DNA from: Marchantia polymorpha subsp. ruderalis
Lineage: Eukaryota; Streptophyta; Marchantiopsida; Marchantiales; Marchantiaceae
Assembly (NCBI GenBank): GCA_037833965.1
Contig: AP031351.1
Span: 26,920,501-26,984,500, forward strand
Direction of reading: 5' to 3'
Length of the DNA: 64,000 nucleotides
The translations under genes and the position numbers were made by a program. The stretch's first letter is position 1. Each line of letters begins with the position of its first letter. Under the pieces are notes generated by a model. That model worked only from the letters and a program-made list of their open reading frames with translations. It did no database searches and was not told the DNA's origin. Below, one piece after another: positions 1-23,093 of the stretch.

Positions 1-495
1 TAGCTCTCACGACAGGCGGATGAGGAATTAATCCGCAGACTGCAATCCGAACGCGGGGAATTGAGAGCGCAGCGTGCGGAGGCCGAATTGCAGTTGGTTG
101 TTGTTGAAGACGATCGCCGGCGGGAGGCAGATCGCACGAAGGAAGAGATGGCGAGGCGAGTCACTCACTGTCTCAGGGGCTACGCCCACTGGGAAGTGGC
201 GGCGCAGGAGAAACTCACACTGCGCGAGTTAGAGCTTCGTGCAGCGGGGTTGTTGACAGGTGACAGTCGGAGTCGGCGGCGAGTTGCGAAGAAGCTAGAC
301 TCTTTTCTGTCGAGATCGCGGGACACCATGGCCACCCTCGAGTCGGAGGTTTCCGCGGTGTTGCGGCGTTTGGGATTGTGCAGTCGAGCTGAAGACTGGC
401 AGGGTAGGGAGTTGGTGCGCGGCAGTCCGTCGCGCAGGAGGCGAAGCACAGGTTCTGCGAATTGTAGTGTAGCGTGGTTCCGTGCAGGCGGTTAG
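1..495 (+). pseudogene. C-terminal part of the element protein (copy A)
   Basis: The frame read from base 4 to the stop at 493-495 encodes a charged, Leu/Arg/Glu-rich helix that should form a coiled coil. It then gives the conserved motif VTHCLRGYAHWEVAAQEK and a tail with LESEVSAVLRRLGL, both also in copies B and C. Bases 1-3 form a TAG stop; alignment with copy B suggests it stands where B has CAG, so the ORF is probably interrupted here. No catalytic domain is visible in this part. Confidence 0.6.
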
Positions 496-531
496 CGTAG
501 TGCAGTGTAGTGTTAGTTAGGACTTAGAAGG

Positions 532-560
532 TATAAAGTAGTTCAAGGCGTCTTGCCTTT
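532..560 (+). promoter_or_regulatory. Conserved TATAAAG plus stem-loop in copy A
   Basis: TATAAAG at 532-538 is followed five bases later by CAAGGC-GTCTT-GCCTTT (544-560), a six-base inverted repeat with one mismatch at the outer pair. The same arrangement occurs downstream of the ORF in copies B, C, D and E. It could be a TATA box, a poly(A)/terminator element or a packaging-type RNA hairpin; the sequence alone does not decide. Confidence 0.5.
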
Positions 561-1504
561 CAATTTTTCAGTTTCGGAAGTGCAGATTAGGAACTCATTT
601 TCTCTGCGTGTTTGTGTCCTTAGTTCTGTCACCACGCAAGAGGAGCTACACCTTGGCGGTCCGCATTGTGTAGCTGAAGGCCTTCGGCTAAATGTTCAGA
701 GCTAGTACATTGGTTAGAGACTTGAGTAGTTCGGATCTACACCTGCGGGTGATTGCCGATGCTAAGAGCCAATGACGAGTTAGATACTTGAACAGTTTCC
801 CCCTTACACCTTCGAGTGATTGTTTCTGATTGTACTCCTTCGGGATTTTTTCCCTGAATGCCAAAGTGAAGTTTTGCTACTTCGTGTAAGCCTTGGTTGT
901 AAATTCAGGTTACGCTGCAGCAGGTGCCTTCAGAGCAACCCCTACAGTATTTCTGGAAATGACAAGTGCTTGAGAATTCAAACTCTTCAATAGACTATTA
1001 TGGTGTGTTACTGGAACGTTTCTCAGTGAGTCCTTCCGTGCGGACTTGTGTTCTCGGCGCGTTTTGTGAGTGTTGTTCACCGCGTGTGAGTGACTTCGAT
1101 TCGAAGTAGGAAGTCCAACCCAGGTTCCCTACGCTAGCAAAAAGCTAGTGGAAGGGTTGTAAAAGCCGGAGTTGGGAGTCACTACCCGCAGCTTCGCTGA
1201 GTACTCGCGAGAGACTTCCCCCTGAAATCTTGAGTAGAGGTCCTAACCGATCTCTGGGTTGTGTTTCTGTAGTTTCAGGTGTGTGTGTGTGTGTGTGTTG
1301 AGTGAACTACGCTGCACTGTGCGACCTCCGAGTGAGCTCCGAGTGAACACTTGCAGTATTTCTGGGAGTGACAGTCGCCTGAGAATTCAAACTCCTCAAT
1401 AGTCTGTTAAATGTGACACTTTGTACCCTGTGTGTTCCTCTGTCCCTGTGGGTTCAACCTTTCTACCACTATATTGCAGTTTTAGCCTTTAGTGGGTTAT
1501 TACA

Positions 1505-2400
1505 ATGTGCGCCAGGCTAAGACCAACAACTCCATCAAATTCTAGATCTATTTGACATTCCAGCGCAAAGATATGGCTTCCGCAAGATCCATGCTCCAAG
1601 GTCAAAGGTGTCATGCGAATACGTATCGCCATACATCCTACATCGCTGACATGCTACTCACAAACACACACATACACATAGGACACGAGAGCGTACACAC
1701 TTAAGTGTACCACAACTAAAAAGTACGGGCTTTCCTCACTGGAAACCCGTTGGTCTGATTACCCTACTGGCAAGAAACCGTCACCTTCACAAAAAAAGTC
1801 AAGCCAAACCCACTCCACACTCGGAGATTACAGGTCGATGCTCACGGGCACTACTCCCAACGCGTTAAGCTTGACTCGAAGAACTGACGTTCTTCGAGTC
1901 TCCTTTGACGCTATACCCTACAACCTGGAACCCTAGGCGTTTACTATTTTTAGTAAAACCAAAAAGTACATTCCAGTTGTCGTGCGAATATGTATCGCCA
2001 TACATCCTACATTGCTGACATGCTACTCACAAACACACACACACATAGGACACGAGAGCATACACACTCAAATGTACCACAACTCGCCCTCCTAGCTGGC
2101 GGTCAGGTCCCTCTGACTTTCAGGTAGCCCTATCTACAACTACATGCTATACACCTTCGTGGGTGCATGAACAAGTAGGCCGGGTGCTATGTTTCCCCAT
2201 CGTTAGTCGCCTATCTGCAATTCATAACATGTGAAGATCAAGTCATCTACCCCTTTGAAGTACATCGAGGACAAACCCATCGTCCAGCCGGAATAACATC
2301 GATAGGCGGAGTCAAGCACGACATGTGCCATCCCCTATAGCACCTATCACACACCAACATACGGGATGCTTGACCAGCTGACCTGTAAGAACTGATGTTG
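1505..2400. repeat. Non-coding repeat-rich stretch with flanking direct repeats
   Basis: No gene is visible. Two direct repeats of about 107 bp (1609-1716 and 1978-2083) differ at only a handful of positions. They flank a 261-bp segment (1717-1977) that has a second copy at 26964-27214. That segment contains a perfect 12-bp inverted repeat (1873-1900: GACTCGAAGAAC, four-base loop, GTTCTTCGAGTC). The rest, 2084-2400, has no recognised feature. Confidence 0.6.
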
Positions 2401-2599
2401 TATGTGTGAACTAGAACTAGAATTAGCCAAGGAGTTAATCATGGTTATGATAGTTATAACTAAATCTAGCTAGTTATGACTAAGTCTAGCTAGTTTAGCT
2501 ATAATGTCTATACTTGGCGGAATAACTAGAGAAGTTCTAGAAGATTTGAGTGAGCACTTCTATTTTGTCTTGTACAAAAGTCTAGATTCCAAGAGAAAA

Positions 2600-2985
2600 A
2601 ACTATTGACTTCATGTTTAGTTTTGATTGGTTTGACTAAAGTAAGGAATACTCCATTGGTTAGACTAAGTCTAATGTTGACTTTCACTTTCCACTTGAGG
2701 ATGAAGAGCATGTGTTTATTACTTGTACTAGATATATTGAGATTCGAGTGGCGCATAAAGTTGATGTCAAGAATTTCTTTTCTCTGCTTCAACTCGAGCC
2801 TTATGATTTATGTTGTTACATTAGAGATATTATTAGTTACCGTTCTAGTGCTTTGGGCACTAGCTAGGGGGTTCTTTTGGTTCTCTCCTAGTTTGGAGTT
2901 GGATTGTTTGTATTGTGTTTTTTAGCCTTTTGACCCTTTGGGTCCCACGGGCTTGATCTATTTACCATTTACCATTTACCACTAA
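2600..2985 (+). mobile_element. LINE-like 3' end
   Basis: The frame from 2672 to the TAG at 2865-2867 reads a short peptide with the pattern LEDEEHVFITC. This resembles the zinc-binding tail (zf-RVT) found after the reverse transcriptase of plant LINEs, where an acidic stretch, a His and a Cys recur. After about 110 non-coding bases it ends in tandem ATTTACC units near 2966-2982, as LINE tails often do. A related tail ends at about 31057. The upstream part is degenerate or absent. Confidence 0.45.
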
Positions 2986-3396
2986 GGAAAGTGAAAGTTC
3001 TAGAAGTTTGAAAGGCACAAATGGCATGTCGCCACCTCAATCTAGGTATTAGTAAACATCTAGAAGGTTTAAGAGGCCAATGGCATGTTGCCACATATTG
3101 ATAACTAGTCAACCTTACTATGGTTTATCTTTGTAAAAATAAGTTAGATAGGAATTACCATTTGTTACTATGGTAAATTTTCAAGTAGTTTATATCGAGA
3201 GGTAGGGAAGAGCCTCTCAAGCAAGTTTGGAGAGTTCATATGTAGAGACTTGTTTCATATATGAAAGAGTGACGATTTTTCAGTACCTTGGAGTGTCAAT
3301 GAGTGTGTGAGTTGGAGTGATACCCTTGAGAGATTGTGTAAGAGGGTGTTTGGGCTATGAGTATAATGCGGAATCCTAGTCTTCTAGAACCATGAT
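2986..3396 (-). other. Presumed 3' non-coding end or LTR of the gypsy element
   Basis: This stretch follows the integrase stop of the minus-strand gypsy element and should hold its 3' untranslated region and perhaps its LTR. A partial tandem duplication lies at about 2998-3092, where a TCTAGAAG...ATGGCATG(T)TGCCAC block occurs twice. I found no matching LTR at the other end of the element, so LTR borders are not assigned. Confidence 0.3.
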
Positions 3397-3611
3397 GAGC
3401 TACCGAAAAGCCATCTGAGTCAGCCCGGAGTTTGCAGACCCACACAGCATGCATCTCAAGCCAGCACGTACTATTGCTAAGCTTGGGTCCATAGTGCCAT
3501 CTACGTTTGGGAGGTGGCATGGCGCACAATTGATCACATGATCCACATGATCCTTCCAAACAACGTCGTCACGACCCTCCAACAGGAAAACTCTAGAAGG
3601 TAACACCTCCA
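3397..3611 (-). pseudogene. Ty3/gypsy integrase C-terminal domain, piece 2
   Basis: Minus-strand reading gives VLPSRVFLLEGRDDVVWKDH followed by NCAPCHLPNVDG, typical of the C-terminal end of plant gypsy polyproteins, then a TAG stop at 3397-3399. It is the continuation of the integrase piece at 15210-15878. When element E (3612-15209) and one target-site copy are removed, the frame runs through without a break (..TILRVLE joined to VLPSRV..). This shows that E inserted into an existing gypsy copy. Confidence 0.8.
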
Positions 3612-4111
3612 TGTAATGACAGATAAATACCAAAATGGAGCATATTGGTAAAGATCCGATCCCACGAGGACAGAAACAACACAAAGAGTACCGATTGTCA
3701 CGTTCTTAACAGTCTATTGAGGAGTTTGAATTCTCAGGCTACTGTCACTCCCAGAAATATTACAGGTGTTCGACTTTGAGGTCACTTGGAGGACACACAA
3801 GGCAGCGTAATACACACAAACACATCAGAAACAAGTAAATGCAAAACTTAGAGGTCGATCAAAACCTCAACTTAAGATTCAAGGGGAAAATTTTCCAAGA
3901 AGTACACTCAGAGGACCTGTAGCTAGCAGCCAATTAAGAACCTGGCACTAGCCAGACGCTATTTCAGACGATTCAAATTGAGGCTCCTACTTCGGATACG
4001 GTACCTTCGTCAAACCGAAGTCACTCTTATGCGGTGAACAACACACTCAACTCACAAAACGCGCAGAGAATACAGAAGTCCAAACTAAGAAAACTAAATT
4101 GAAAAAGAACT

Positions 4112-4140
4112 CCAAGGCTAACGCCTTGGACTACTTTATT
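4112..4140 (-). promoter_or_regulatory. Conserved AATAAAG plus stem-loop in copy E
   Basis: On the minus strand AATAAAG (4140-4134) is followed by CCAAGGC-GTTA-GCCTTGG (4129-4112), a perfect 7-bp stem with a four-base loop. It lies just after the ORF end, as in the other copies. Confidence 0.5.
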
Positions 4141-4141
4141 C

Positions 4142-6429
4142 CTAACTACCAAAAACTGTCATCTGCTGCGGTGCAAGCACCGAACATGTCCTACGCCTTT
4201 GGGGTCGGCAGTTGCCGCCCCCTCTAACCTCCGCTCCAAACCTAATCTTTGCAAAACGCATACTAATTCTACCTCTAACTTTGCTACCGCGTCGCGCGAT
4301 CTGATAAGATACGATTCTAACTTCTTGGACAGCCAACGGTGCCTGCGTCCGCTCTTCTTGATCAACTTGGCATCACGATGTTCAATCTCTCGTAACCGAA
4401 GCGCGTTGTGAGATTTGATCTACCACAGCGTGAACCCGCGCAAACATCGGTCCACACGCGCAGTTAAGGCTTCACGTGTCTCTCCCGATATCTGTTGATT
4501 CTTCCCTTCGGCCTCCGTCAATTTTGCCTCCATCTCGCATAACTGCTCTTCAGTTTGCGACAATTGCATCCTCAACTCGCCACACTGTGTCTCCAATTTC
4601 TCAATTAACTCCAGATCCGCAATCCGCGTAGCTTCGTTCTTAGATATCTTCTTCGTCTTTACCGCCAACTCGGTCTGGTACTCTCACTTTGCTTCCTCCG
4701 CGGCAGCCTGCAATTCATCTACCTTTGAGGACTCAGCGTCTTATGCAGTTCTGCAGGCTTTCAATCTCTTCAGAAGGTCTACGCTGGCGCACTTAGCCCT
4801 CTCCACATCTTCACAAAGACTGTCACCAGCTTGCTCCGCCTTCCGTCGCTTCTCAACTTCTTCAGTCAGCTTCCTCTGGAGTGCCTAGTACTTTGCTTCT
4901 GGCGGCTAACTTCTTTGTTCCTTATCAGCGACCTCAAGAGCCAGTTCTCGCTTAACCCGCATCCGGTTGCGCACTATCTCCACGTAGGATTCACTAAGGT
5001 TGCCCTCGGCGTACTTCTCCCGCTTCCGGTCGAGGTACTGGAGCAACAGTACTACCTGCACACTCAACACATCGACGGCATCCAAGGCTGCTGACTGTGT
5101 CTCTTCTGCTGAGGATTCCTCACCCTTCTCCAATGTGATGGTGTCCGTGGAAATCCGAGGTGAAGTCACCTTCTATGGTTCACTCTCGGCTGCTACCACG
5201 GCTTCCATGGCCTTCGCCGCTACTTCTTCTAACGCCACCGGGTCCTTCTCAGTATGTGAGGACACCGTTAAGACCTCAGCGGCCTCTGCCCGAAGTCCCT
5301 TCCGCTGGGTTCTTTCTACATGAACATCTCTCCGTTTCAAGGGAACGTCCTCAATCAACATGGCTTTCCCTTTATCTCTCCTTAAAGCCTGCGACTTCTC
5401 GACAGAGGTCGACCGACCTTCCTTAGTGCAGGACTTCTTCCTAATCGGCTCATCCTTACTCTTGGCCGCTTTCTCCACCGACCATGTTTCTTGACTAGAA
5501 CAGTCCTTCCTCACTATCCTTCTACTCTCAGGATAGCTATCGTCGTCTAGGACCAGTCTCCTGACCTTCATCTTTGACCGCGCCCTAAAGTAAGGTGTTT
5601 GCATCGCGATGAGAGCGGTGCGCTGTAACCGCTCCTCTTCTACTACAGCCTCGTCAATTCAACGCTTCTTTCTTGGCTGGGAGTCCTGCCGACCTCGAGA
5701 TCGCTTCCTCCTCTGCTGAGGAGAACTCCGTGGTTTGCCTTCCAGGTCCGAATTGACTTCGTTGGCTAACACTACCTCCTCTCCTTCCTGCTCAACATTC
5801 CGTATCGGAAACGCTGTGCTCTCTTCAGCAGTCAACAGGTTCATGCCCCGATAGAAATTGATAAAAAACGGGGATAAGTAACTAAGCGATCCTCCAGAGA
5901 GTAGCCCAATGTGTTGTCGGGTTACAGTCCAAAAAATCTGCGCCCAATGGATACGATCTCCGCGTAGAGCTCTCTTGATGAATCCCACCTGCCAAGTCAT
6001 CATGTAGGTGGGTCGCTGCGGCCAAAGGATTTGCATCAAAGCCATCGCGATGTTCCGCCGCATTCGATCTCGATACCACACTATGCGGTACCTGTTCTTC
6101 CCTTTGCGGGGATGCTTGAATATGTCGACGTAAGCTTTCTCCTCTTCTCTCATCACTCGCGCACTCTTAGCATCGAATGTGAGATCGCCGTCGTCACCTG
6201 CGCTTTGTCCCAAGACCTTCCAGTCCCAGATTTCCCAAGTGTCGGGGTGGCCTCTGTAACTCGGCGGTTTTGGCAATCCATTGTTGTCTCATTCTTGTAT
6301 GATCGCGTCGCTCGTCCAATTCCATCCCCACAATAAGAACTCCATCTTCACCAGAATCAAATCACTACGATAAGCTCGTAAGTCATCATCGGGCACTCGT
6401 AGAGCGAGGAGTTTGATCGGCCGCGCCAT
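4142..6429 (-). pseudogene. Element protein of copy E, disrupted
   Basis: The likely start is ATG at 6429 (MARPIKLLALRVP), aligned with MSKVPQLRVSPLRVP of copy B. The N-terminal domain is recognisable across a stop near 6300: FLLWGWNWT, then YRDRMRRNIAMALMQILWP and TYMMTWQVGF. It continues with an acidic/basic middle (5604-5173), a LQYLDRKREKYAE block (5169-4906), a coiled coil with VDRCLRGFTLW (4668-4420) and a LVCVLQRLGLE tail. Several frameshifts and stops separate these blocks. The order matches B, C and D, so it was one protein. No enzyme signature is visible. The N-terminal part loosely recalls plant transposon-associated domains (Transposase_32 or plant mobile domain); that is inference. 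Confidence 0.7.
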
Positions 6430-8411
6430 CGCTAATTTTTGCTCTTCTCATCCGCGCGCCTTTGTCCCGCGTCGACGTCTCAATGTGTTCATGAAATGCG
6501 TGCAACGAGCACCCAACTCCTTGGGTAATCCCCGCCGTCGCAACGGTCTCCCATGCGTGCGAATTGAAGGTGCCGCCATTCAAATTCTTTCCCTAGCGGC
6601 ACTATCTTTTACAGATCTGGTACCCTTCACCCCTTTCTGACTGTGAAGCCTCGATGTCCTCACGTACACCGGTTGAGTACCCTTTCCCCAAGTACCTGTC
6701 TTGGTACTCAAATGAGGTAGTTTGTGGGGCCTACTTTTTTGTTTTTGTTTAAAAATTAACAAAAACAAAAACATATGTGTGTAGAAGATAGCTATATGAG
6801 TTCGAAAGAGTAGATTTATAGGTGTTCTGATAGGATTAGTTAGAAATTGTCTACGTCCAAAAATCTTCGGATCTTCGCGTCTTCGGCGTAGTCTTTTAGG
6901 ACGCACGAAGAGCTGCGTCTTCGGCGAAGAAATCGGAATCAATTTCAAATCATGCAACGGGACGGACGAGGTTCGCACGCGTCGGGAGTTCTACGAGGCG
7001 CAGGAGAAGGCAATGTTAGGGCTTCAAGGGTAAAGGCAGTATGAGGAGACTGCGCGCCGACATTGCGATATCAAGCAAGAACGATCGAGAGCGAGAGGAA
7101 TTGCAATCAAGCCAACCCGCGATTAGCGAAACGCAAATTGAATACATGGCGCCCAAGAAGAGTGAGAAGGTGAGGAAATTGGTTCCCTTGAAGGTGCCTT
7201 ATGAGGAATTGAGACCCTTCAAACACGAGTTGGGGGAACTGCGGCTTGAATTCCTTCTGTGGAATTGGAATTGCGTCTCAGCGAGTATCTGGAAGGAGGT
7301 TATGGACAAGAGCGCGACCGAGGGCGAGGAGCTCCGCGGTAATTCCATGTTGTGGACCATCGAGCATTGGACGAAAGTAATGGGACCGTGTGCGGGAAGC
7401 GACGGAGACCTTCTATTTGACAAGAATAGCGTAGGACTTACGCGCGTCGAGGAATTCTCTTACGGGCCTCTCTTCGAGAGTGGAAGATAGGGAACAAATG
7501 GATGGAAGAGTGTCGATTATAAGGATCCGAAGAGAAGGGCAATCGCGTTAGGGATCATGCACATTTTACGTCCGGCGCGCACGACTTATGTGACGGCCTG
7601 GCAGGTGAGATTCTTCAAACGCATTTTGAAGGGACAGCGCGTAATTGGGCAAGGATCTTTTACGACCTTGTCTGAGTGAATGCGCCTGGTCGATGGACGG
7701 GATCTATGACCAATCATCTTACCCCCTTTCTGGTGAATTTCTATCGAGGAATGGGATTGCTTACGAGGTAGGAGGAAAAACGATTTCCAAGGGAACAGGA
7801 GAGCTTTTTAGTGGAGTCCAGTGAAGGGACCGAAGACGAGAACCGATCTCCCGCAGTTCCAACACACACTACCGCTCGAGGACCAGTGCAGGTGGACGTG
7901 ATTCCAAGGCAGGAGCAGTCAAAGAGACGAGTGGCAAAGAAAAGGAAGGTCGTAAGTGATGATGAGGAGGAATTGGCACACACGGTAAGAAGGATGTATG
8001 TGGATGTGAGTGGAGCCAGACACCATAGAGCTCGCGCAAGAACAAAGAAGAGGGCGAAACGGAGGATGGTGACAATTGACGTGTCAGATAGCAGTGTGGA
8101 GAAGACGGTGGCACCAATTGTGATCACATCCGAAGTCGCAACTAGCGAGGTAATGCGATCTGTGGAGTTAGGGGTACCTTCGGAGGTGTCAATCGAAGAT
8201 CCGGCAGATATACCGGCAAAGCCTTTGAACGAGGGAACGGAATTGGTACGTCCGATTTCTCTGTCTTCAGAGCGGACACGGTCTGCGCAAGGCGAAGGGA
8301 CACCCCATATGAAGATGAACGAGGATCAAGAGAAGGAGTTTACTTTGAGCGAGGAGATTCTGGAACATGTTGTCGCAAGGATAGGAGGGACGGTGGTGGA
8401 AGCTGTGGGCA

Positions 8412-9549
8412 TGTGGTAACACACTTTTTGTTTTTTTGCGGAATTTAAACAATTTTGAAAAAGAAGTACCGAAGCAGTATCTGTAGTTAGGAAATGGTAC
8501 GTTAAATTGAGGAAATTGAGGAGATCGCGGGTCACGAAGAATCACGGAGTTGGGCGCAACGGCGCCAAACGCCTTCGGCAACATCTCCTTTGCTGAGGTG
8601 TCTTTACCCACGCGCCTCCGGCGCGTAGGGAAGGTACGCTTTTGGCACAGACACCTCCGGAGGAAATTTCGCTGAAGACGTCAGAAGCCGGCAAGAACCT
8701 CTGAATGCTTCCGACCTGGAGTGCGCCGTTGGCGCGGGAGAGAAACCTTCATAACGATCAGGATTCACGGTAGTTCTATTTGGTTAAGGTCTCATTGAAA
8801 AGAGCTCGGGACGCTCGTTCTAACGAGCCCAAGAACGCCTGAGATGGATCAGGGACGAGGAAGTTATGAGCCTCGGTAAACTCGCATCCGGCGATGGGCA
8901 GGTTGGGAAAAGACAAAATAGTCGGAGCGTACGCTCCACCGCGGCGAACTCCAGACCGGCGTACACCTTCGGCGAGTATTACGCCTTCGGCGAACTCGAG
9001 GTCGGAAGCCCTCGGCGATGACGAACTCAGAGCCGGCGGACGATGGCGGCGGGAGAATTCAACGTTCAAGCATGCGAGTGCGCGCAGTGCGGAGGCGTGA
9101 ATTCGAGCATGCGAGGGAGAACCGTTAGGCCGCATAGCCGGCTGCGTAATCAAGTGGGGTTGTACCCACTGCCTACGAAGAGCGTTGTGCGATCTTGATT
9201 TCAGAGAAGAAAAGTCTGCTCTCCACTCTCATTCTCTCATTCTTGATTTTGAGTTTTCCAGCTTCAGAGCTTGAGGCGTGCAGCTCAATCGGGCGGAGAG
9301 ATCTTCAGTGAGTTGGAGAGAGTGGAGGAATCAGTGAGCAGGAAGGAGTGCGTAGCAACCAGGCGCGCGGAGGCGAATTGCGCGAGGATCTTGACGGACC
9401 CTGCAGAGAGTTTGAGAGTAGAGAAATTGAGCGCGCAAGGGAGGAGAGAGCAATTTCAGTTAGTGTCTGAGCGGCCGACGCGCAGCGGCGATTGTGAAAG
9501 ATCGAGCGGGAGGGAAGAGCGTCTGTGTGTGCAAGAGGGAGCGAGAAAT
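8412..9549 (+). other. GC-rich leader of copy B
   Basis: This untranslated leader lies between the 5' terminus and the first ATG of the ORF. It holds scattered short palindromes of the type GCCTTCGGC (8570-8579, 8965-8973, 8982-8991 and relatives such as CCTCCGGAGG). The reverse complement of the matching region is present in copy C at 21716-23093. No promoter could be placed. Confidence 0.55.
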
Positions 9550-12106
9550 ATGTCGAAGGTCCCCCAGCTGCGAGTGTCTCCACTCCGAGTGCCGCAGATC
9601 GGTCTGCGCGCATTCCAGGATGTGTTGACGAAGTTGAAGCTTGATTTCCTCCTGTGGGGATGGAATTGGACGTGTCCGGAGATGGTGTGCGAATATTTGC
9701 GGGAGAGACACCAGCCCGCGCGCGGATTCCGCCTCCATCCAGAGTGGTGGGACATTAGTCACTGGGCGGAGGTATTAGGAAGGTGTGCAGGCGAGGAAGG
9801 ATATCTCCTCTTCGAGGCCGAAAGCGTGAAGGTGTCGAAGGAGGAAGAGAACTCCTACAATGATCTTTTCAAGGTTGGCAGGCATCCCAAGAACGGCTTC
9901 CGGACGCGGGATTACAAAGATCGATTGCGGAGAAATGTCGCGACAGCATTGCTTCAAATATTGCAGCCGACCAAGACCGCCTACATGCATGGTTGGCAAG
10001 TGGGATTTGTGGAGCTAGTGTTGTTAGGAGCTCCGATTCATTGGGCACGGCTCCTGTGGAAGGTGACGCGCCAACATGCGCAAGAAGAGAGAGGAGGGAC
10101 CCTCAATCATCTTTCGCCTTACCTGATCGTGTTCTATCGAGCGATGGGATGTTTGACAGCTTCAGAGCGGGCGCGATTTCCGCTGCTGACCCGGAGTAAT
10201 CCGGGTAGATACTTGCGGGAGGCTGAAGTGGACACAGATCCGGACGAAGCACCTGCCAGTCCAGCTCCGGCTCCGGCAAGAGCAGAAGAAGAGCATCGAC
10301 GTGAGCGCGCACCGCGGAAGCGGAAATGGGATGAGAGGCCAGAAGACAGGCAGCCGGAAGCTCCCGCTGCGCCGACTCGGAGTCGGCCAACCCACGAGCT
10401 TTACAGAAGGTCGAAGCAGAGGGCGCGTAAGTTGGTGTTGCCGACTAGCAGTGCGGAGACCGGGCGTACTCCGGTCCGGCGGAATGTCCTGCCCACGCAG
10501 GAGGAGATAATCGCACAGATTCTGGGGAGGTCGATGAACCCCTCTGCGCACAAGGCGCGGATGCCTTCGGAAGAAGTCAAGCAAACTGAGAGTCGGCCGA
10601 CTACGAGTCGGGCGACTGAAGGTCGGCCAACTGCAGGTCGGCAAGAACAGCGTGTTGAACCGGACAGCAGGCCGGAAGCAGAAGAGAGTTTGGCTGCAGA
10701 GCCAATGACTCTCAAGGAGTCGTCTTCGGAAGAAGACGCTTCTGAGGAAGCGCCTCCAGCGAAGCGACCAAGTGGAGTGAAGACATGCAGAGTGGATCCG
10801 ACTGCCAGTCGGACAACTGCTAGTCGGCCGACTGCGAGTCGGTCAACTGAGAGTTGGCCAGATTCGCCGACTACGAATCGGATAGACCCGGCGACCATTG
10901 TGCGGGCGCCTTCGGCGGACACATCTCCGGCGAAGACACCTTCCGTGCAGATCGCGCCGGAGGAGCAGGTAGTAGAAGTGGGCGGTGCAGGGGCGACAAG
11001 AGTGACTGCGGCGCCGACCCCTTCGAGAACAAGAGATCAAGCCGGAGCGGAGGCTCAGGCAGTGGGATCTCCCACTGCCTTGGATATCTTAGTAGGGAGT
11101 GGAGCGGCAGTCGCGGCGGAAGCTGCCACGCACCACAGTTCCAGGGAGTCGCCAAAAGCTTCTGTGGCGACTGAAATCCTCGAAACAGAGGATGAGACGA
11201 GTTCGGAAGAACAGGAAGCGGACTTTGTGCATGGGACGCCAACAGGGGTACTGTGCGAGCAGATAGTGCCACTCTTGCGATATTTGGATCGCAAGGCAGC
11301 AAAGTACGCGAATCCTAGAAAGCCGTAGTCTTATGTGGAGTTAGTCAAGAACAGGACGAGGACCAAGGTGGCCATTTGGGGCACTAGGTGCCAAGCAGAT
11401 GAAGAATAATGCCCTCCAACAGCACCTGGCGATCACGAAGAGGCTACAACAGGCCCTGCAACAACAGCGTGAGGATGCGGCGATGAAAGCCCAGGAGGAT
11501 GTCGAGCTGCTGCGGGCAAGGATTGAGTTGGAATTGCAGGAAGAGCGGAGACAAAACCGCATTCTGACAGAGGAGCTTGCGCGCCAGACGCGCGCATTAG
11601 AGCAAGGTCAGAGCACGCGCAAAGCGGATGAGGAGTTGTTGCGCAACTTGCAATCCGAGTGCGCGGAATTGAGGGCGCAGCGCGCAGAGGCTGAGGTGCA
11701 GCTGAGAGAGGTGGAAGGCAGCAGCCGGCGCGATGCGGATCGTACGAGAGAGGAGTTGGTGGCGCGGATGACCCACTGTCTCAGAGGTTACACCCACTGG
11801 GAAGTGGCGGCGCAGGAGAAAATCACACTCAGGAAGTTTGAGCTTCGGGCGGCGGCGTTGACGGAGGGTGACAGTCGGAGTCGGCGGGGAGTGGCGAAGA
11901 AATTAGAGGCCTTCTTGTCGGGTGCGCGCGATACTATGGCGCACTTGGAGTCGGAAGTGACCGGGGTCCTTCGGCGGCTGGGGTTGCGCAGCCGAGCGGA
12001 AGACTGGCAGGGTAGGGAGTTAGTGCGCGGCAGTCCGTCGCGCAGAAGGCGCAGTACAGGATCTGCAGAGTGCAGCAGTGTAGCTTGGTTCCGTGCAGGC
12101 ATTTAG
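9550..12106 (+). pseudogene. Element protein of copy B (one stop, one frameshift)
   Basis: The first ATG (9550, MSKVPQLRVSPLRVP) is shared with copy C, so I take it as the start. Residues 1-230 form a conserved Trp-rich domain (FLLWGWNWT, WWDISHWAEVLGRCAGEEGY, RDYKDRLRRNVATALLQIL, YMHGWQVGF, IHWARLLWKVTRQH). Residues 230-520 are Pro/Arg/Glu-rich and low-complexity, with many SRPT-type repeats encoded by a 15-bp minisatellite. The C-terminal part has IVPLLRYLDRKAAKYA, a coiled coil, VARMTHCLRGYTHWEVAAQEK and VLRRLGLRSR. The frame stops at 11326-11328 (TAG where C has CAG), and a 5-bp deletion near 11395 shifts it; it resumes from 11399 to 12106. No RT, integrase, protease or transposase motif is visible. 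A gag-like structural or DNA-binding protein is a guess. Confidence 0.75.
10580..10880 (+). repeat. GACTGCGAGTCGGCC-type minisatellite inside the ORF
   Basis: Imperfect 15-bp units built on GACTxxxAGTCGGCC occur in clusters and encode repeated Ser-Arg-Pro-Thr-(Ala/Thr/Glu) pentapeptides. The same kind of array is in copy C (20390-20700, minus strand) with different unit numbers. This part of the protein therefore changes by repeat slippage and is probably disordered. Confidence 0.7.
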
Positions 12107-12150
12107 AGTAGTAGGTAGTGCAGTGTAGTGTTAGTTAGGACCTTAGAAGG

Positions 12151-12179
12151 TATAAAGTAGTTCAAGGCGTCTTGCCTTG
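12151..12179 (+). promoter_or_regulatory. Conserved TATAAAG plus stem-loop in copy B
   Basis: TATAAAG at 12151-12157 is followed by CAAGGC-GTCTT-GCCTTG (12163-12179), a perfect 6-bp stem. It lies about 45 bases after the ORF stop and is conserved in all five copies. Confidence 0.55.
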
Positions 12180-13134
12180 GGATTCTTCCAGTTTCGGAAG
12201 TACAAATCAGGAACTCACTTTCTCTGCGTGTTTGTGTGTTTAATTCTGGCACCACGCAGAGGAGCTACAGCTTGACGAAGGTAATGCATTTTGTAGCTGA
12301 AGGCCTTCGGCTGAATGTTCAGAGCTAGTATACCGGTTAGAGCCTTGAGTAGTGCGGATCTACACCTGCGGGTGATTGCCGATGCTCAGAGCCGGTTGCG
12401 AGTTAGATACTTGAGCAGTTTCCCCTTACACCTTCGAGTGATTTATCCTGATTGTACTCCTACGGGATGTTTCCCCTGAATGCCAAAGTGAAGTTTTGCT
12501 ACTTCGTGTAAACCTTGGTTGTCAATTCAGGTTACGCTGCAGAAGGCACCCTCGGGGCACACCTCTGTAGTAATTCTGGGAATGACTAGTGCCTGAGGAT
12601 TCAAACTCCTCAAAAGTCTGTTATGGTGTGTGTTACTGGATTGTGTCTTAGTTGAGTTTCTCAGTCGGACCTGTATTCTCTGCGCTTGGTGTGAGTTGAG
12701 GGTGACGTCCACCGCGTATGAGTGACTTCGTTCCGAAGTAGGAAGTCCAATCCGGGTTCCCTGCGCTAGCAGAAACTAGCGGAAGGGTTGTAAAAGCCAG
12801 AGTTGGGAGTCACTACCTGCAGAGCCTCTGAATGTACTCGTGAGAGACTTTCCCCCTGAAATCTTGAGCCGAGGTCCTGACCGACCTCTGAGTGGTGTGT
12901 TTTTTTTCAGTTTCAGGTGTGTGTGTTGAGTGACTTACGCTGCACTGTGCATCCTCCGAGTGACCTCCGAGTTGAGCACTTGCAGTATTTCTGGGAGTGA
13001 CAGTCGCCTGAGAATTCAAACTCTCCAAAAGTCTGTTAAACGTGACACTTTGTACTCTGTGTGTTGCCTCTGTTCCTGTGGGTTCGACCTTTTTACCACC
13101 ATACTGCAGTTTTAGCCTTTGGTGGGTTATTACA
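12180..13134 (+). other. Non-coding tail of copy B with internal duplication
   Basis: The tail has no ORF of note. It contains two related blocks about 410 bp apart (near 12570-12640 and 12980-13050), each with TTCTGGGA(A/G)TGAC, (G)CCTGAG(A/G)ATTCAAACT and AGTCTGTTA. The same pair occurs in copy A (about 945-1005 and 1355-1415). It may derive from an old tandem duplication in the ancestral element. Confidence 0.55.
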
Positions 13135-14451
13135 GGGCATTACACTGCCGACGTCTCCTGTGGAAGAGGTGAGACCCGAAGAAGGAAAGAAGACTTCGGG
13201 CGAAGAGGTGAAGACATTGGAAGTTACATTTCCTGAATTCTTGCAGGATAGTGTAGTACAATTGTTGAAGTACTTGGACGGGAAGAGAAGAAAGTATGTT
13301 GTATCGAAGGAGCCAGGATTCTATGTTCAGATGATCAGGAACAGAACGAAGCTCAAGAGAGCAGATGCAGTAAAGAGGGAGTGGGATTCCGCGACTTCAT
13401 TGGCACGGGAGCGAGCTACAACCTTGTCAACCGAGTGCGCGGCAGTGAAGGCAACATTGCGGGAGCGAAAAGCCCAGCTTCGGGAGAAGGAAACTTAGTG
13501 TGAAGTGCTGCAGCTGAATCTAGAGAAGGAATCAGGACGTTGTGCAGAGTTGGAAGAGACCTTTGGAGGACTTCGTACCTCTAATGAGAATGCCCCGAAG
13601 GTAACAGTGGATTTGATGGCGAGATTGGAGAAATCTAAGGAAGCTTACGATGCATCAGTCAAAAGGGCGGAGAGATTGATCAAGACAGCGGAGAAGCGAG
13701 AAAAGAAGCATGTCGAAGACCTTGCTAAGTTGGAAGCCCGAAGAGCCGAAGAAGCTCGCATCGCCGAAGAACTTCGGGGCAAGCTCGTAGGTACGAAGAC
13801 GGCGGAGGAAGATCTTCGTAGGCAAATCTCTGAGATTGACGCGAAGTACGAAACAGAATTCCGACATGCGGAGGAGCTATCAGCAAGTGTGTCGGCGGAA
13901 AATCAGAAGCATGAAGACGAGTTGAAGGATTGGGCCAAGAAATTGGCAAAGTACAAGTCGGCCAAGTCTTCGGAGGTCGAATGTAGATTAAAGGTTGAAT
14001 CTGACTGTCGACGGTTACAGGAGCAGTTAGGTTAGTCGGAGATGAGATCGGAAGAGTCGCAGAGGAGAATGCAAAAGGCAGAGGATGCCTATCGTCAGCT
14101 GCCATAGGATTCAACCGACGTGTTGAGATTGCGGTTAGAGAAGTGCCTGAACGGGTTCGCGATGTGGGTATTGGATTCGGTGAAGTGGTTGAAACTAGAT
14201 CTGCTCAAGCGATGGCTGATGAGCGCGAAGTCCAGCGGATCCGCAGGACACAAACAGATTGTAGAGTTAGTTAATTCATTTTCAAAGGAATTGAATGAGG
14301 CGCGCCAGAATGTAGAAGTTGAGATTGTAAATGTGTTGCGTAGATTAGGAGTAGAGAGTATTTCAGACGATGCTGTAACCATTACATCGGACGGCACAGC
14401 CCTTGAGGCCGATTCGCCTCAGGCGGTTGATATCCCAGAGTTGTCATTGTG

Positions 14452-15209: not shown

Positions 15210-15878
15210 CTCTAGCACTCGCAAGATTGTGCGTCCCGCCGTCACATCCAATATCGTCGATGCATTCTGCTATAGATAGACGAAGTTTCCCACATGGAAT
15301 CTACGAATCGATGATCAATAACTTTCTTCCCGAATGATTGCATATCGCAATGTATCTCTATGTTGAGCAATCGCAAGATTCTCAAACGCTGTTGGCAAAA
15401 CTCTTTGAAAGAGCTCTGCACGTTAAGAACATACTCTCGCCCACATATTCGGATTATCAAGGTTCACCACCTCGCTAGACTCACGACAAATTGATGTTGG
15501 CAAGTCTGGATCTTGGCCGTACAATAGAAAATATGGTGAGAAGGAAGCCAAGGATGCCTGCTGACTGAACCGATATCCCATGGCCAACCATGGTAACTGA
15601 ATATCCCAATTCCCAAGATGACCTTTCTAGAGGCCATACTTGTGCAACGCCCTCTTCACCGTTTGTACAACACGTTCAGCTAAACCATCCGCCTGTGGAT
15701 GATCTTGCGACGTGGTTCGGTGATTAATCAGCGCCTTGTCACACAAGACCTGAAACTCCGTCCCCTGATCGGTCAACACCTCAGCTGGTGCACCATAGTG
15801 ACTAAGCATCCTTTCAAGGAAGGCATACGTTGTTCCCTCACTCGCCTGAGGTCCACTGGTTCTCGCTCCATCAACCAC
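15210..15878 (-). pseudogene. Ty3/gypsy integrase, piece 1
   Basis: The minus strand reads FLERMLSHYGAPAEVLTDQG, then HPQADGLAERVVQTVKRAL, matching the second catalytic Asp (LTDQGTEF) and the Glu helix (GLAERVVQTVKRAL) of a gypsy integrase core. The piece joins RNase H sequence at about 15870 with no zinc finger and no first catalytic Asp, so an internal deletion removed about a third of the integrase. Further frame breaks follow. The C-terminal end lies at 3397-3611, beyond insertion E. Confidence 0.8.
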
Positions 15879-16393
15879 TTGAGCGGCTGATGATCAGTAA
15901 CAAGGGTGAACTCTGTACCAAACAAGTAACACCTGAAGTGTGTCATAGCCCACACCACTGCCAAGCAGTCTTCCTTGTACGAACTATACCGCGACTCCGC
16001 TGCATTGTTCGAACGACTAGCGTACGCAACCACAAACTCCTTAATGTCATCATCACGCTGCGTCAACATCGCTCCAAGTCCCAACATACTCCTATCAGTG
16101 TGCAAGTGGTATGGACGACCTCTGATAGGTCTCCTCAAGATGGGAGCGGTCACCAACCTGGCCTTGAGTTCAACAAAAGCTCTCTCCTGCTCATCTCCCC
16201 ATTGCCACTCTTGATCTGACTTCAGCAAATGGTTCAAAGGCTTGGCTATAGCACTGAACCCCTTCACATACCTCCGATAGTAGTTCGCCAAATCCATGAA
16301 TGCACAAACTCTACTCACATCCGTGGGACGAGGGATGCGTGCAATAGCCTTCACCTTTGCTTGCTGAAGTCCTAAACCACCTGGGTATATCAT
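15773..16393 (-). pseudogene. Ty3/gypsy RNase H domain
   Basis: The minus-strand frame gives the end of the RT connection (SDQEWQWGDEQERAFVELK) and the RNase H core: HTDRSMLGLGAMLTQ (active Asp), YSSYKEDCLAVVWAMTHFR (active Glu) and LVTDHQPLKWLM (active Asp). The domain is nearly intact but fused by deletion to integrase sequence at its end. The neighbouring RT is in another frame, so the polyprotein is broken. Confidence 0.88.
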
Positions 16394-17010
16394 AGGTATA
16401 TCTCGTGGAAGAACTTACACTTCCCAGGATGTAACCTCAAACCATAAGCCATCAACCGCTCAAACACAATTTGCAAATGTATTTGGTGTTGCTCCACAGT
16501 GTCACTAAACACCAAGATATCATCAATGTAACATCTGACAAAATCCAACCCCGCTAGGATTTTGTCCATAACTCTCTCAAACTCGGCAAGTGCATTCTTC
16601 AACCCTAAGGGTAAGAATCGTCACTTATACAAACAATCCTTGCCGTGGAAGTTGATACCTCAAAACGCCATCTTGGCCTTGTCCTCCTCCCGAATTGGCA
16701 ACTGATGGTATCATGCCCGAAGATCCAAAGTACTAAAAATCCTCGCATGTTTCACCACATCGAAGATCTCCTTAGGTGTAGGCATGGCATACTTATCGGA
16801 CTTCGTCTGCCAATTGATAGAACGGTAATCTCCACACATGCGCCTATTCGTGTAGTTGCCATGTACATACTTCTTCACCGACATGACAGTGGCTGAAGCA
16901 TACTCACCATGCGAGAACTCCACTAATCCAGCCTCCAGTAGGTCCAAAGTCCTACTCCGAATCAAATCCCTCTCCATCTCACTGTATCGTGTATACGTGA
17001 AGAGATTCAA
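16390..17010 (-). pseudogene. Ty3/gypsy reverse transcriptase domain
   Basis: Two minus-strand blocks cover the RT: 17010-16711 (MCGDYRSINWQTKSDKYAMP, then FSTLDLRA) and 16602-16390 (NALAEFERVMDKIL, then FVRCYIDDILVFSDT with the YIDD active site, then HPGKCKFF). A stop and a frame change lie between them at about 16710-16605. The family is clear; the gene is not functional. Confidence 0.88.
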
Positions 17011-18249: not shown

Positions 18250-19098
18250 TGTAATGTAATAACCCACCAAAGGCTAAAACTGCAGTATGGTGGTAAAAAG
18301 ATCGAACCCACAGGGACAGAGGCAACACACAGAGTAAAAAATGTCACGTTTAACAGACTTTTGTAGAGTTTGAATTCTCAGGCGACTGTCACTCCCAGAA
18401 ATACTGCAGTGCTCGACTCGGAGGCTCGACTCGGAGGAGGATCTCGACTCGGAGGATGCTCGGAGGATGCACAGTACAGCGTAGTCACTCAACACACACA
18501 CGCACACCTGAAACTGGCAAAAGCACAACTCGGAGGTCGGTCAGGACCTCCGCTTCGGATTTCAGGGGGAAAGTGTCTCAAAAGTTCACTAAGAGGTTCT
18601 GCAGGTAGTGACTCCCACTCCGGCTTTTACTGCCCTTCCGCCAGGAACTAGCGTAGGGTACCCGGACTGGACCTCCCACTTCGGAACGAAGCCTCTTCAT
18701 ATGCCGTGGACGTCACCCTCGACTCACACCAAACGCAGGGAGTGCATGCCCGACTGAGAACTTAACTAAGACACAATCCAGTAACACACACACTTCACTT
18801 TGGCATTCAGGGGAAACTTCCTGTAGGAGTACAATCAGGATATGTCACTCGAAGGAGTAAGGGGGAACTGTTCAAGTCTCTAACTCGCAGCCGGCTCTAG
18901 GCATCAGAAATCACCCGCAGGTGCAGATCCGCACTACTCAAGTCTCTACTAGCTCTGAACATTCAGCCGAAGGCCTTCAACTACAACATACGGTAACTTC
19001 GCTATGCTGCAGCTTCTCTACGTGGTGCCAGGACCAAAATGCACAAACACGCCAAGAAAGTGAGTTCCTGATCTGTACTTCCGAAACTGGAAGAGTCC

Positions 19099-19127
19099 CA
19101 AGGCAAAACGCCTTGATCTACTTTATA
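19099..19127 (-). promoter_or_regulatory. Conserved TATAAAG plus stem-loop in copy C
   Basis: On the minus strand TATAAAG (19127-19121) is followed by CAAGGC-GTTTT-GCCTTG (19115-19099), a perfect 6-bp stem just after the ORF end. Confidence 0.55.
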
Positions 19128-19159
19128 CCCTCAAAGGTCCTAACTAACACTACGCTATC

Positions 19160-21715
19160 CTATCTACTACTCGCAACACTTGCACGAAACCAAACTATGC
19201 TACTGCACTCTGCAGATCCGGTGCTGCGCCTCCTGCGCGCCGGACTGCCTCGCTCTCTATCTCTACCTTGCCAATCTTCCGACCGGCTGCGCAACCCCAG
19301 ACGTCGGAGGGCTGCAGTCACTTCCGACTCCAAGTGCGCCATAGTGTCGCGCGCACCCGACAAGTAGGATTCTAATTTCCTTGCTACTCGCCGCCGACTC
19401 CGACTGTCACCCTCCGTCAATGCCGCTGCCCGAAGCTCGAACTCCCTGAGTGTGATCTTCTCTTGAGCTGCCACCTCCCAATGGGCGTATCCTTTTAGAC
19501 AGTGAGTCACCCGCGTCGCCAACTCTTCTCGCGTCCGGCAGCTGTCTTCCACCTCTGCTAGCTGCATTTCCGCATCCGCGCGCTGCGCCCTCAAATCCGC
19601 GCACTCGGATTGCAAGTTGCGCAACAACTCCTCATCCTCCTTGCGTTTACTTTGACTTTCTTCTAAGGCGCGCTTCTGGCGCGCAAGCTCTTCTGCTAAG
19701 ATGCGGTTTTGCCTCCGCTCTTCCTGCAATTCCGACTCGATCTTTGCCCGTATTAGCTCGGCATCCGCCTGGTTTTTCGTCGCCGCATCCTCCCTCTGCT
19801 GTTGCAAGGTTTGGTATAGCTTCTGTGTGACCGCCAGGTGTTGTCGGAGGGTAGTGTTCCTATCCTGCAATATTTGGCACCTAGAGGCCCAAGTGGCCAC
19901 CTTGCTCCTCGTCCTGCGCTTGACAGTCTCCACGTAAGACTGCGGTTTTCCGGTACCCGAGTACTTGGATGTCTTGCGATCCAGATATCGCAGGAGTGGA
20001 ACTATCTGCTCGCACAACACCCCTGTTGGCGTTTTCTGCACAGAATCCGCTTCCTGCTCTTCCGAGCTCGTCTCATCCTCCGTTTCGAGGATTTCAGTCG
20101 CCACCGAATCCCTTGGCGACTCCCTGGAACTGTGGCGCGCAGCAGCTTCCGCCGCGACTGCCGCTCCACTACCTGCTAAAATATCCAAGGCAGTGGGGGA
20201 TCCCACTGCTTGAGCCCCTGTTCCGGCTCGATCTTCGGTCTCCGATGGGGTCGACGCCGCAGTGACTTTTGTCACCTTTGCACCGCCCGCTTCTGCTGCC
20301 TGCCCTTCCGGCGCGATCTACGCGGAAGGTGTCTTCGCTAGAGGTGCGTCCGCCGAAGGCGTCCGCACACTGGTCGCCGGCCCTGTCCGTCTCGCAGTCG
20401 GCGAATCTGGCCGACTCTCTGTTGACCGACTCGCAGTCGGCCGACTAGCAGTTGTCCGACTGGCAGTCGGATACACCCTGCGCGTCTTCACTCCACTTGG
20501 CCTCCTTGCTGGCGGCGTTTTCCCAAAAGTGCCTTCCGCCGAAGGCGACCCTCTGAGGGTTGTTGGCTCGTCAGCCAAACTCTCTTCTGCTTCTGGCCTG
20601 CTGTCCGGTTCAACGCGCCGCTCCGTCGGCCTTCCTTCCGTTTGTCGACCTTCAGTCGCCCGACTCGTAGTCGGCCGACCGTCAATCCTTCCATCTTCTT
20701 CCGAAGGCATTGGTGCCTTCTGCGCAGAGGTATTTGTGGACTTCCCCAGAATCTGCGCGATTATATCCTCCTGCGTGGGATTCCGCCGGACCGGAGTACG
20801 CCCGGTCTCCTCAGTACTAGTTGGCATTTTGCGTGCCCTCTGTTTTGGTCGACTGTGAGGCTCGTTGGTTGGCCGACTACGAGTCGGCGCAGCTGGCGCT
20901 TCCGGCTGCCTGTCCTCAGGTCTTTCATCCCACTTCCGCTTCCGCGGAACGCGCTCACTTCGACGTTCTTCTGCTGCTCTTGCTGGGGGCGGAGCCGGAG
21001 GCGGACTGGCAGGTGCCTCGTCCGGATCCGTGTCTACTTCGGCCTCCCGCGAGTATCTACCTGGATAGCTCCGTGTCAGCAGCGGAAACCGTGCCCGCTC
21101 TGAATTTGTCAAACATCCCATCGCCCGATAAAACACAATCAAGTAAGGCGAAAGATGATTGAGGGTTCCTCCTCTCTCTTCTTGCGCATGTTAGCGCGTC
21201 ACCTTCCACAGGAGCCGTGCCCAATGCACTGGAGCTCCTGACAACACTAGCTCCACAAATCCTACCTGCCAACCATGCATGTAAGCGGTCTTGGTCGGCT
21301 GCAATATCTGCAACAATGCAGTCGCGACATTCCTCCGCAATCGATCTTTGTAATCCCGTGTCCGGAAACCGTTCTTGGGATGCCTGGCAACTTTGAAAAG
21401 CTCATTGTAGGAGATTTCTTCCTCCTGGGACACCTTCACGCTATCGGCCTCGAAGAGGAGATACCCTTCCTCGCCGGCACACCTGCCCAACACCTGCGCC
21501 CAATCACAAATGTCCCACCTCTCTTGATGTGGACGGAATCCGCGTGAGGGCTTGTGCCTCTCCTGCAGATACTCGCGCACCATCTCCGGACATGTCAAGT
21601 TCCATCCCCACAGGAGGAAATCGAGCTTCAGCCCCATCAGCACATCTTGAAATGCGCGTAGACCAATCTGCGGCACCCTGAGTGGAGACACTCGCAACTG
21701 GGGGACCTTCGACAT
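19160..21715 (-). pseudogene. Element protein of copy C (two nonsense codons)
   Basis: The start is ATG at 21715 (MSKVPQLRVSPLRVP). One frame runs the whole length but is stopped twice: TAA near 21191 where B has CAA (..LLWKVTR-stop-HAQEERGG..) and TAG near 20318 where B has CAG (..TPSA-stop-IAPEG..). Otherwise it covers the complete protein: N-terminal Trp-rich domain, Pro/Arg-rich middle with SRPT repeats, IVPLLRYLDRKTSKYS, long coiled coil, VTHCLKGYAHWEVAAQEK and LRRLGLRSRSEDWQG. Without the stops it would be about 850 codons. Like B it lacks polymerase, integrase and transposase signatures. Confidence 0.8.
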
Positions 21716-23093
21716 TGTGTTTCCTGCACACACAAACGTTCTCCCTTCCGCTCGCTCTCTCACAATCGCCGCTGAGCGTCGGCCGCTCAAGTACTGACTG
21801 CTGTCTCTCTCTCCTCTCTCGCGCTCAAGTTCGCTACTCGCAAATTCTCTCCAAGGTCTGTCAAGATCCTTGTGCAACTCGTCTCCGCACTCTCCCCTCT
21901 CACTGCAGGTCTCTCCGCCCTTGCGCGAATTCTTGGAAGCTAGAAATCGCAAAATCAAGAATGAGAGAATGAGACTTGAGAGCAGTCTTTTCTTCTCCGA
22001 ATTCAAGATCGTCCAACGTTCTTACTGGTTACAATTTATGCAGCCAGCTATACGGCCTAACGGTTCGCCCTTGCATGCTCGAATTCACGTCTCCGCACTG
22101 CGCGCATTCGCATGCGTGAATGTCGAATTCTCCCGCCGCCACCGTCTTCCGGACTTGAGTTCGCCGCAGTGTATACGTCGGCTATGTTGTCTTTTCCTAA
22201 CCCGTCCATCACCGGATGCGTGTCGCCGCTGGCGTGTTCCTTATCCGTCGGCGCCCTGCTGGAGGCGCACATCCAGTCGGCGCGAATTACGCCGGCGCAT
22301 ATTCGTTCCGCTTGTTTTGTCCGTTATGTCTCGTCCATTGCTGACGGCGCATATCCCGCCGGCGCAAGTCATGCCAGCGCAAATCATGCCAGCGCATCCG
22401 CCTATCGGCACCACGTCGGAGGCGTACATCCGGCCGGCGCTTTCCTTCCGTTGCGTAGCCGCCAAAGGCGCTTCCGACTCTGAGTTGATTTCCTCCCATG
22501 AGCGCGTGATTCCGCCGAAGGCGCATCGCCGAAGGCGTACGGGAGTCCTTTCCGACTGTGAACCCTAGCGCGAACGGCGCATGTCCGGCTACGAGTTTTC
22601 CGATGCTCATAACTTCTTCGTCCCTGATCCATCTCCAACGCTCTTGGGCTCGTTAGGACAAGCGTCCCGAGCTCTTTCCAATGCAACTTCAACCAATTGG
22701 AACTACCGTGTATTTCGATCGTTAGGAAGGTTTCCCTTTCCGCGCTAGCGGCGCATCGCCGAAGGCGCACTCATGGTCGGAAGCCTTCAGAGGTCCGTGC
22801 CATTCTTCTGACGTCTTTAGCAAAATCTCCTCCGGAGGTGTCTGCGCCGGAAGCGTGGCTTCCTTAAACGCTGGGAGCGCGTGAGTAGAGACACCTCAGA
22901 AAAGGAGCTTTTGCCGAAGGCGCCGAAGACATTTGGCGCTGGTACATCCGACTTCGCGATTCTTCGTGACCTCGTGACGATCTCCTCAATCCACTCTATT
23001 TAACGTACCCTTTTCTAACTACAAACACTGCTTCGGTACTAGTTTTCTAAAATTGTTTGAATTCTGCAAAAAAACAAAAAGTGTGTTACCACA
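21716..23093 (-). other. GC-rich leader of copy C
   Basis: Non-coding leader with many GCCGAAGGCG/CGCCTTCGGC units (about 22515-22535, 22750-22760, 22915-22925) and GCCGGCGCA/GCCAGCGCA repeats (22280-22440). It corresponds to 8412-9549 in copy B on the other strand. The open frames here look like by-products of the GC-rich repeats. Confidence 0.55.

What the first reader, a model, noticed from the sequence alone, without database searches (positions are those of the whole stretch)
8412..13134. Unusual element class: one coiled-coil ORF, TGTNR...YNACA ends, 5-bp TSD, no LTRs
Four copies with both ends visible start TGTG(G/A) and end TTACA with 5-bp duplications, which implies a retroviral-type integrase. 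Yet the 4.7-kb bodies of B and C show no LTR pair, no RT and no integrase. Three explanations fit. They may be solo LTRs of a retroelement whose very long LTR carries a gene; the internal TATAAAG would then be its promoter. They may be non-autonomous Ginger-like DNA transposons, whose ends are described as TGTNR...YNACA. Or they may be a new integrase-dependent class moved in trans. The ORF is conserved across at least three diverged subfamilies (B/C, D, E), so it probably matters to the element.
Basis: partly seen in the sequence, partly recalled or inferred. Interest (0 to 1): 0.9.

Follow-up and report, generated by a model that had tools for sequence, protein, structure and literature searches.

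The report
Jumping gene with gene-bearing end repeats
The odd 4.7-kilobase elements are leftover end repeats of a plant Ty3/gypsy retrotransposon whose unusually long end repeats each carry a whole conserved protein gene, an arrangement best known from a mouse retrovirus.

Summary
In detail: window 8412-13134 starts TGTGG, ends TTACA and lies between two GGGCA copies. It is not a new integrase-dependent class and not Ginger-like; it is a solo LTR of a Ty3/gypsy retrotransposon. In the same genome, units with these ends occur as a pair of 4,870 bp LTRs around a 5,799-bp interior with a tRNA-Asp primer-binding site, gag-protease, an in-frame UAG, RT-RNase H-integrase and a polypurine tract, inside a 5-bp duplication. 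The window's own subfamily also sits directly behind an integrase and polypurine tract. The 5' terminus occurs 3,255 times; interior junctions 1,182 and 1,385 times.

The unusual part is the LTR. An 851-codon sense ORF fills U3 and ends 33-45 nt before the only TATAAA, so on genomic RNA it would be the last gene, after pol, where env-like genes sit. Between subfamilies its N-terminal domain shows strong purifying selection (dN/dS 0.12-0.24; shifted frames 0.92-2.35). No Pfam or PDB relative was found, and ten literature searches showed no plant precedent; the positional analogue is MMTV sag. Expression and function are not shown. Verdict: new variant of a known kind.

The parts
8407..8411 (.). 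target-site duplication GGGCA, left copy
13135..13139 (.). target-site duplication GGGCA, right copy
8412..13134 (+). solo LTR (B subfamily), 4,723 bp, TGTGG...TTACA
   Evidence: same subfamily found behind integrase and PPT at C7:22141384 minus
9550..11328 (+). U3 ORF, N-terminal domain and middle part, 592 aa, ends at a stop absent from intact relatives
11399..12106 (+). U3 ORF, C-terminal coiled-coil part, 235 aa, in a different frame from the first part
12151..12156 (+). TATAAA, the only one in this LTR, 45 nt after the ORF; inferred promoter of the element, so U3 = 8412 to about 12180 and R-U5 = about 12180-13134
   Evidence: position; promoter and U3/R/U5 limits inferred
18255..23093 (-). 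second solo LTR (D subfamily), 4,839 bp, TSD TTACA at 23094-23098 and 18250-18254
19160..21715 (-). U3 ORF of that copy, 89.9% aa identical to the intact 851-aa protein, two in-frame stops
16..1504 (+). 3' part of a related LTR (82.6% to positions 3213-4723 of the first copy), ending TTACA

Best explanation
The unit is a solo LTR of a Ty3/gypsy retrotransposon with gene-carrying giant LTRs. The full element is LTR (about 4.7-5.3 kb) - tRNA-Asp primer-binding site - gag-protease - in-frame UAG - RT-RNase H-integrase - polypurine tract - LTR. Its integrase makes the 5-bp duplication, and recombination between the two LTRs leaves the solo unit (solo formation is inferred from structure). Most of U3 is one sense ORF of 851 codons: a conserved 240-aa N-terminal domain, a Pro/Ser/Thr/Arg-rich middle and a probable coiled-coil C-terminus. 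The ORF ends just before the TATA box that should start the genomic RNA (promoter inferred). On that RNA the ORF is present once, in the 3' U3, downstream of pol and of the PPT, i.e. in the env-like position, while reverse transcription copies it into both LTRs. Shown: anatomy, copy number, TSDs, ORF conservation and purifying selection. Inferred: transcription start, expression of the ORF (perhaps from a spliced or subgenomic RNA), and that its product is an accessory factor in the element's replication cycle.
For: LTR pair of 4,870 bp each around a 5,799-bp interior, TSD GGACG; gag, zinc knuckles, protease, RT, RNase H, integrase by Pfam; PBS of 18 nt complementary to this genome's tRNA-Asp end, 19 loci, 3 of 3 checked are Asp; PPT|LTR junction 1,182 and LTR|PBS junction 1,385 times, controls 0; window subfamily behind the same PPT and integrase; E-like LTR followed by PBS-region sequence and gag. 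ORF: 851 codons, no stop in 4 of 8 near-full-length D-type copies; dN/dS in residues 1-240 of 0.12-0.16 (B-D, 12 pairs), 0.15-0.24 (D-E, 12), 0.14-0.23 (B-E, 9) against 0.92-2.35 in shifted frames, and 0.60-0.84 among three B copies. TATAAA once per LTR, 33 nt (D) or 45 nt (B) after the ORF.
Against: No RNA or protein data were available, so expression of the ORF is not shown. A full element with two B-type LTRs was not seen: the B copy behind integrase is interrupted upstream. D-E and B-E synonymous sites are close to saturation, so those ratios are approximate. Within-D and within-E pairs also have low ratios (0.05-0.21 and 0.10-0.19), so the relaxed ratios seen after insertion rest on the B copies only.
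Confidence: 0.93

Rival explanations
1. Non-autonomous Ginger-like DNA transposon moved in trans by a retroviral-type integrase.
Against: The same termini bound paired LTRs around gag-pol, with PBS and PPT junctions over a thousand times each. I made no search with a Ginger model.
Confidence: 0.01
2. A new integrase-dependent class moved in trans.
For: Isolated units are frequent: about 690 termini remain after subtracting both kinds of interior junction (rough).
Against: Solo LTRs arise in any LTR retrotransposon by LTR-LTR recombination, and tandem LTR-interior-LTR-interior-LTR arrays in this genome show such recombination.
Confidence: 0.02
3. Origin variant of the best explanation: the ORF was an ordinary third gene between pol and the 3' LTR (an env-like or extra ORF) that became part of U3 when the polypurine tract moved upstream of it, rather than a gene captured directly into the LTR.
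For: It is in sense, directly after pol; extra ORFs of plant elements are most often between pol and the 3' LTR (PMC7264820, abstract and sections 3-4 read). The PPT now starts 24 nt after the pol stop. tRNA-Asp priming is also reported for Diaspora, an Athila relative, whose relatives have env-like ORFs (PMC1142308, passages).
Against: No relative with the ORF outside an LTR was found, and none could be sought in other plants here. No transmembrane-like stretch (highest 19-residue Kyte-Doolittle mean 1.22) and no Pfam match to Athila ORF-1, plant mobile domain or Transposase_28 at E<=10.
Confidence: 0.4
4. The ORF is a passenger without function in the element (for example a host gene fragment caught in the LTR).
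For: Many copies are broken, and no known domain is recognised.
Against: Low dN/dS between three subfamilies in the right frame only, and relatives down to 27-44% aa identity in the window itself.
Confidence: 0.05

Closest known systems
Mouse mammary tumour virus sag (gene in the U3 of the LTR; recalled, sag named in listings)
   Same: A sense gene lying in U3, hence at the 3' end of genomic RNA and present in both LTRs.
   Different: Retrovirus of animals; sag encodes a superantigen. No sequence relation was tested or is claimed.
Plant Ty3/gypsy Athila/Tat-type elements with extra ORFs and large LTRs (Athila, Diaspora, Ogre, Retand)
   Same: Non-chromovirus gag-pol order, 5-bp TSD, tRNA-Asp primer as in Diaspora (PMC1142308 passages), LTRs of up to about 5 kb known (PMC6317226 passages), extra gene downstream of pol.
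   Different: The extra ORF lies inside the LTR, after the PPT; published extra ORFs are described in the internal region (PMC7264820). The ORF has no Pfam match to the domains named for such ORFs.
[not shown]
   Same: Ty3/gypsy without additional RNase H, in a liverwort; this genome looks like one (inference).
   Different: No sequence comparison was possible; the passages read do not mention genes in LTRs.
Ginger DNA transposons
   Same: TGTNR...YNACA-type ends.
   Different: Here there are LTR pairs, PBS, PPT, gag and RT.

Membership tests
Ty3/gypsy LTR retrotransposon | two LTRs with TG...CA ends inside a short TSD | tested here: met
   one element read at both ends: 4,870-bp LTRs, TSD GGACG; eight same-strand terminus spacings of 10,649-10,671 bp among the first 100 places
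Ty3/gypsy LTR retrotransposon | PBS after the 5' LTR and PPT before the 3' LTR | tested here: met
Ty3/gypsy LTR retrotransposon | domain order gag-protease-RT-RNase H-integrase | tested here: met
Tat lineage | additional (archaeal-type) RNase H | tested here: not met
   [not shown]
Athila lineage | RT/INT phylogenetic position | not tested
   no reference RT set was at hand; tRNA-Asp PBS fits but is not decisive
Plant env-like ORF | sense ORF downstream of pol | tested here: met
   (but after the PPT, inside the LTR)
Plant env-like ORF | transmembrane segment | tested here: not met
   highest 19-residue Kyte-Doolittle mean 1.22
Ginger DNA transposon | no RT, gag or LTR pair; own integrase-type transposase | tested here: not met
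LTR-borne gene of the MMTV sag type | ORF inside U3, upstream of the promoter of the same LTR | tested here: met
   promoter identified only by its TATAAA
LTR-borne gene of the MMTV sag type | ORF expressed from element RNA | not testable with these tools
   no transcript data

The most novel reading that the evidence does not exclude
A lineage of plant Ty3/gypsy elements has made its third gene part of the U3 of the LTR, so that solo LTRs keep a gene copy and the protein could be supplied in trans from very many solo and paired LTRs. The product would be a dedicated, selected accessory protein of a new family (conserved N-terminal domain plus coiled coil), a plant retrotransposon counterpart of MMTV sag in position though not in function.
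Probability: 0.35. Interest if true: 0.8.

Novelty: new variant of a known kind. Interest (0 to 1): 0.6.

Why it matters
Extra ORFs of plant retrotransposons have been found so heterogeneous that their function was questioned (PMC6317226, passages). Here one is shared by three subfamilies, shows measurable purifying selection, and sits inside the LTR, where LTR-based annotation may treat it as non-coding, or report solo copies as an unknown repeat. Its place makes testable predictions: the gene is doubled at every insertion, survives LTR recombination, and should be expressed from the 3' LTR or by a route of its own. The genome holds thousands of copies, so selection, expression and silencing of an LTR-borne gene can be studied in one plant.

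Tried and rejected
Ginger and new-class readings were set aside after the termini were found paired with PBS, PPT and gag-pol; no search with a Ginger model was made. Remote homology of the ORF: the window ORFs, the whole 851-aa protein, the window N-terminal domain and seven N-terminal stretches against Pfam (E<=1; E<=10) and PDB sequences gave nothing credible; the best was SKG6, E 0.0017, 17.8 bits against a cut-off of 30, in residues 534-725. A genome search with PF20167, chosen because I recalled a resemblance, found nothing, and its controls rang nowhere, so it shows nothing. Structure prediction of the N-terminal domain from seven window-only rows gave pLDDT 49, so no fold search was run. 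A 1.5-kb form (positions 3150-4723) first looked like a separate small LTR; it is the conserved 3' part of longer diverged LTRs. A possible long diverged element in the window, from a TGGAG duplication, was dropped because one such 8-mer is expected by chance. A splice acceptor in the T-rich start of U3 was considered and dropped: the AG is present in the D copies printed, but 5 of 7 B copies read have GCGG there, and E lacks the tract.

TTTAGGG repeats, nearly all of the listed ones at the end of C7, and nine contigs, one of 5.6 Mb, suggest a Marchantia-like liverwort; this is inference. Ten literature searches were answered and showed no plant LTR-borne conserved gene; the library holds open-licence papers only, so this is weak. 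I could not search other plant genomes.
Full report
What was checked. Window 8412-13134 starts TGTGGTAACACAC and ends GGGTTATTACA, with GGGCA immediately on both sides. The window is C2:26920501-26984500 of an unnamed nine-contig, 241-Mb genome. A second unit lies at 23093-18255 on the minus strand. The 19-nt 5' terminus, with up to 2 mismatches, occurs 3,255 times; the reversed control pattern occurs 6 times. I read ten 20-kb regions, 10 of the 39 non-window hits, plus the window. In these, 33 start-end combinations were compared and 15 have an exact 5-bp duplication; of 15 unit-length pairs 14 do, one of them the same locus seen in two duplicated regions. The one without a duplication is followed by TAAGGAGCCGACAAC, the start of the interior of a full element.

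What it is. Integrase (rve) hits lie 608 bp upstream of copies of the terminus, for example C1:383308 with the terminus at C1:382700, and a second terminus lies 10,669 bp away at C1:393369. Among the first 100 places listed, eight same-strand spacings are 10,649-10,671 bp (counted by eye). Read in pieces, the C1 element has LTRs of 4,870 bp (393369-388500 and 382700-377831), an interior of 5,799 bp and GGACG on both sides. The 770 LTR bases compared (200 + 570) are identical. After the 5' LTR come 22 nt and then TGGCGCCGCTGCCGGGGA, the complement of this genome's tRNA-Asp(gtc) 3' end plus CCA; 19 loci match the tRNA pattern and 3 of 3 checked are tRNA-Asp. The interior encodes gag with zinc knuckles and an aspartyl protease (945 codons), an in-frame UAG, and RT-RNase H-integrase (946 codons). 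A polypurine tract GAGGAGGGGGGCA begins 24 nt after the pol stop and abuts the 3' LTR. This is a Ty3/gypsy retrotransposon.

Does the window's subfamily belong to it? The C1 pair is of the D subfamily (76-85% to the window copy in the pieces compared). At C7:22141384 an LTR start 92% identical to the window copy follows the same PPT and an integrase ORF; this stretch is 87.6% identical over 2,200 bp to that of the C1 element, the last 200 bp being LTR. An E-like LTR end is followed by TAAGAAGCCGACAAC and a gag reading at 67% aa. So LTRs of all three subfamilies are seen attached to retrotransposon interiors. The B element at C7 is interrupted upstream, and I did not see two paired B LTRs. PPT|LTR junctions number 1,182 and LTR|PBS junctions 1,385 (controls 0). 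Subtracting both from 3,255 leaves roughly 690 termini for solo or truncated LTRs; the mismatch limits differ between the searches, so this is a rough figure.

The gene in the LTR. Intact D-type LTRs carry one 851-codon sense ORF, at LTR positions 1360-3915 in the copy translated. TATAAA occurs once in each of six LTRs examined, 33 nt after the stop in D copies and 45 nt after it in B copies (not computed for E). The ORF thus lies in U3, and on RNA started at that TATA it would be the last gene, behind pol and the PPT (inference). Of 8 near-full-length D-type ORFs 4 have no stop; the three near-full-length B-type ones and the window copy are broken. Nei-Gojobori dN/dS in residues 1-240 has medians 0.13 (B-D, 12 pairs), 0.18 (D-E, 12) and 0.20 (B-E, 9), range 0.12-0.24; the same aligned DNA in shifted frames gives 0.92-2.35 (ten of the twelve copies; one E copy and the diverged window copy were left out). 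Among three B copies it is 0.60-0.84, with 0.26-2.08 in shifted frames (few differences). Within-D and within-E pairs stay low (0.05-0.21; 0.10-0.19). The middle and C-terminal parts give 0.31-0.40 and 0.27-0.55 between B and D. Synonymous sites between E and the others are near saturation, so those ratios are approximate. My reading: the protein was selected while elements were active, and the B copies have decayed since insertion. Relatives at 27-44% aa identity occur in the window itself.

What the protein might do. The N-terminal 240 aa are conserved; residues 238-560 are rich in A, T, R, P and S; residues 592-729 lack Pro and Gly, as expected of a coiled coil; there is an RKRK cluster at 258 and no hydrophobic stretch of transmembrane type. 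No Pfam or PDB relative was found. The structure model (pLDDT 49) is unusable beyond suggesting mostly helix. I think an accessory protein acting inside the cell, possibly in the nucleus, is more likely than an envelope; this is inference.

Verdict. What deserves attention is the conserved U3 gene: a new variant of a known kind of element.

Noticed in passing
C1 element interior (L037, L038); c4, c5 and c8 regions (L015, L017, L024): gag-protease and pol are separated by an in-frame UAG followed by CAA-CUA (C1) or CAA-UUA (c4, c5, c8), the leaky-stop context known from tobacco mosaic virus (recalled): 4 of 4 junctions read, three distinct loci since c4 and c5 are duplicates.
   Followed up: partly
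window 7146-8411 and 13140-14100 (+): The window copy is inserted into the ORF of an older, diverged relative (39% and 33% aa identity before and after the insertion).
   Followed up: partly
G000 C2:15.269-15.290 Mb and C4:3.411-3.434 Mb: Tandem LTR-interior-LTR-interior arrays with periods of 10,649 and 10,657 bp, as expected from unequal LTR recombination.
   Followed up: no
G000 C1, about 2.31, 2.71 and 3.07 Mb: The smallest contig carries large near-identical duplications: pairs of termini 4,428 bp apart recur three times, and two fetched 20-kb regions match almost base for base.
   Followed up: no
window 15489-16965 (-): Remnant of another gypsy-type pol, 31-37% aa identical to the C1 element.
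   Followed up: no
window 57004-58626 (-): A 540-aa open frame with a rhomboid domain (PF01694, E 2.4e-34), probably a host gene.
   Followed up: no
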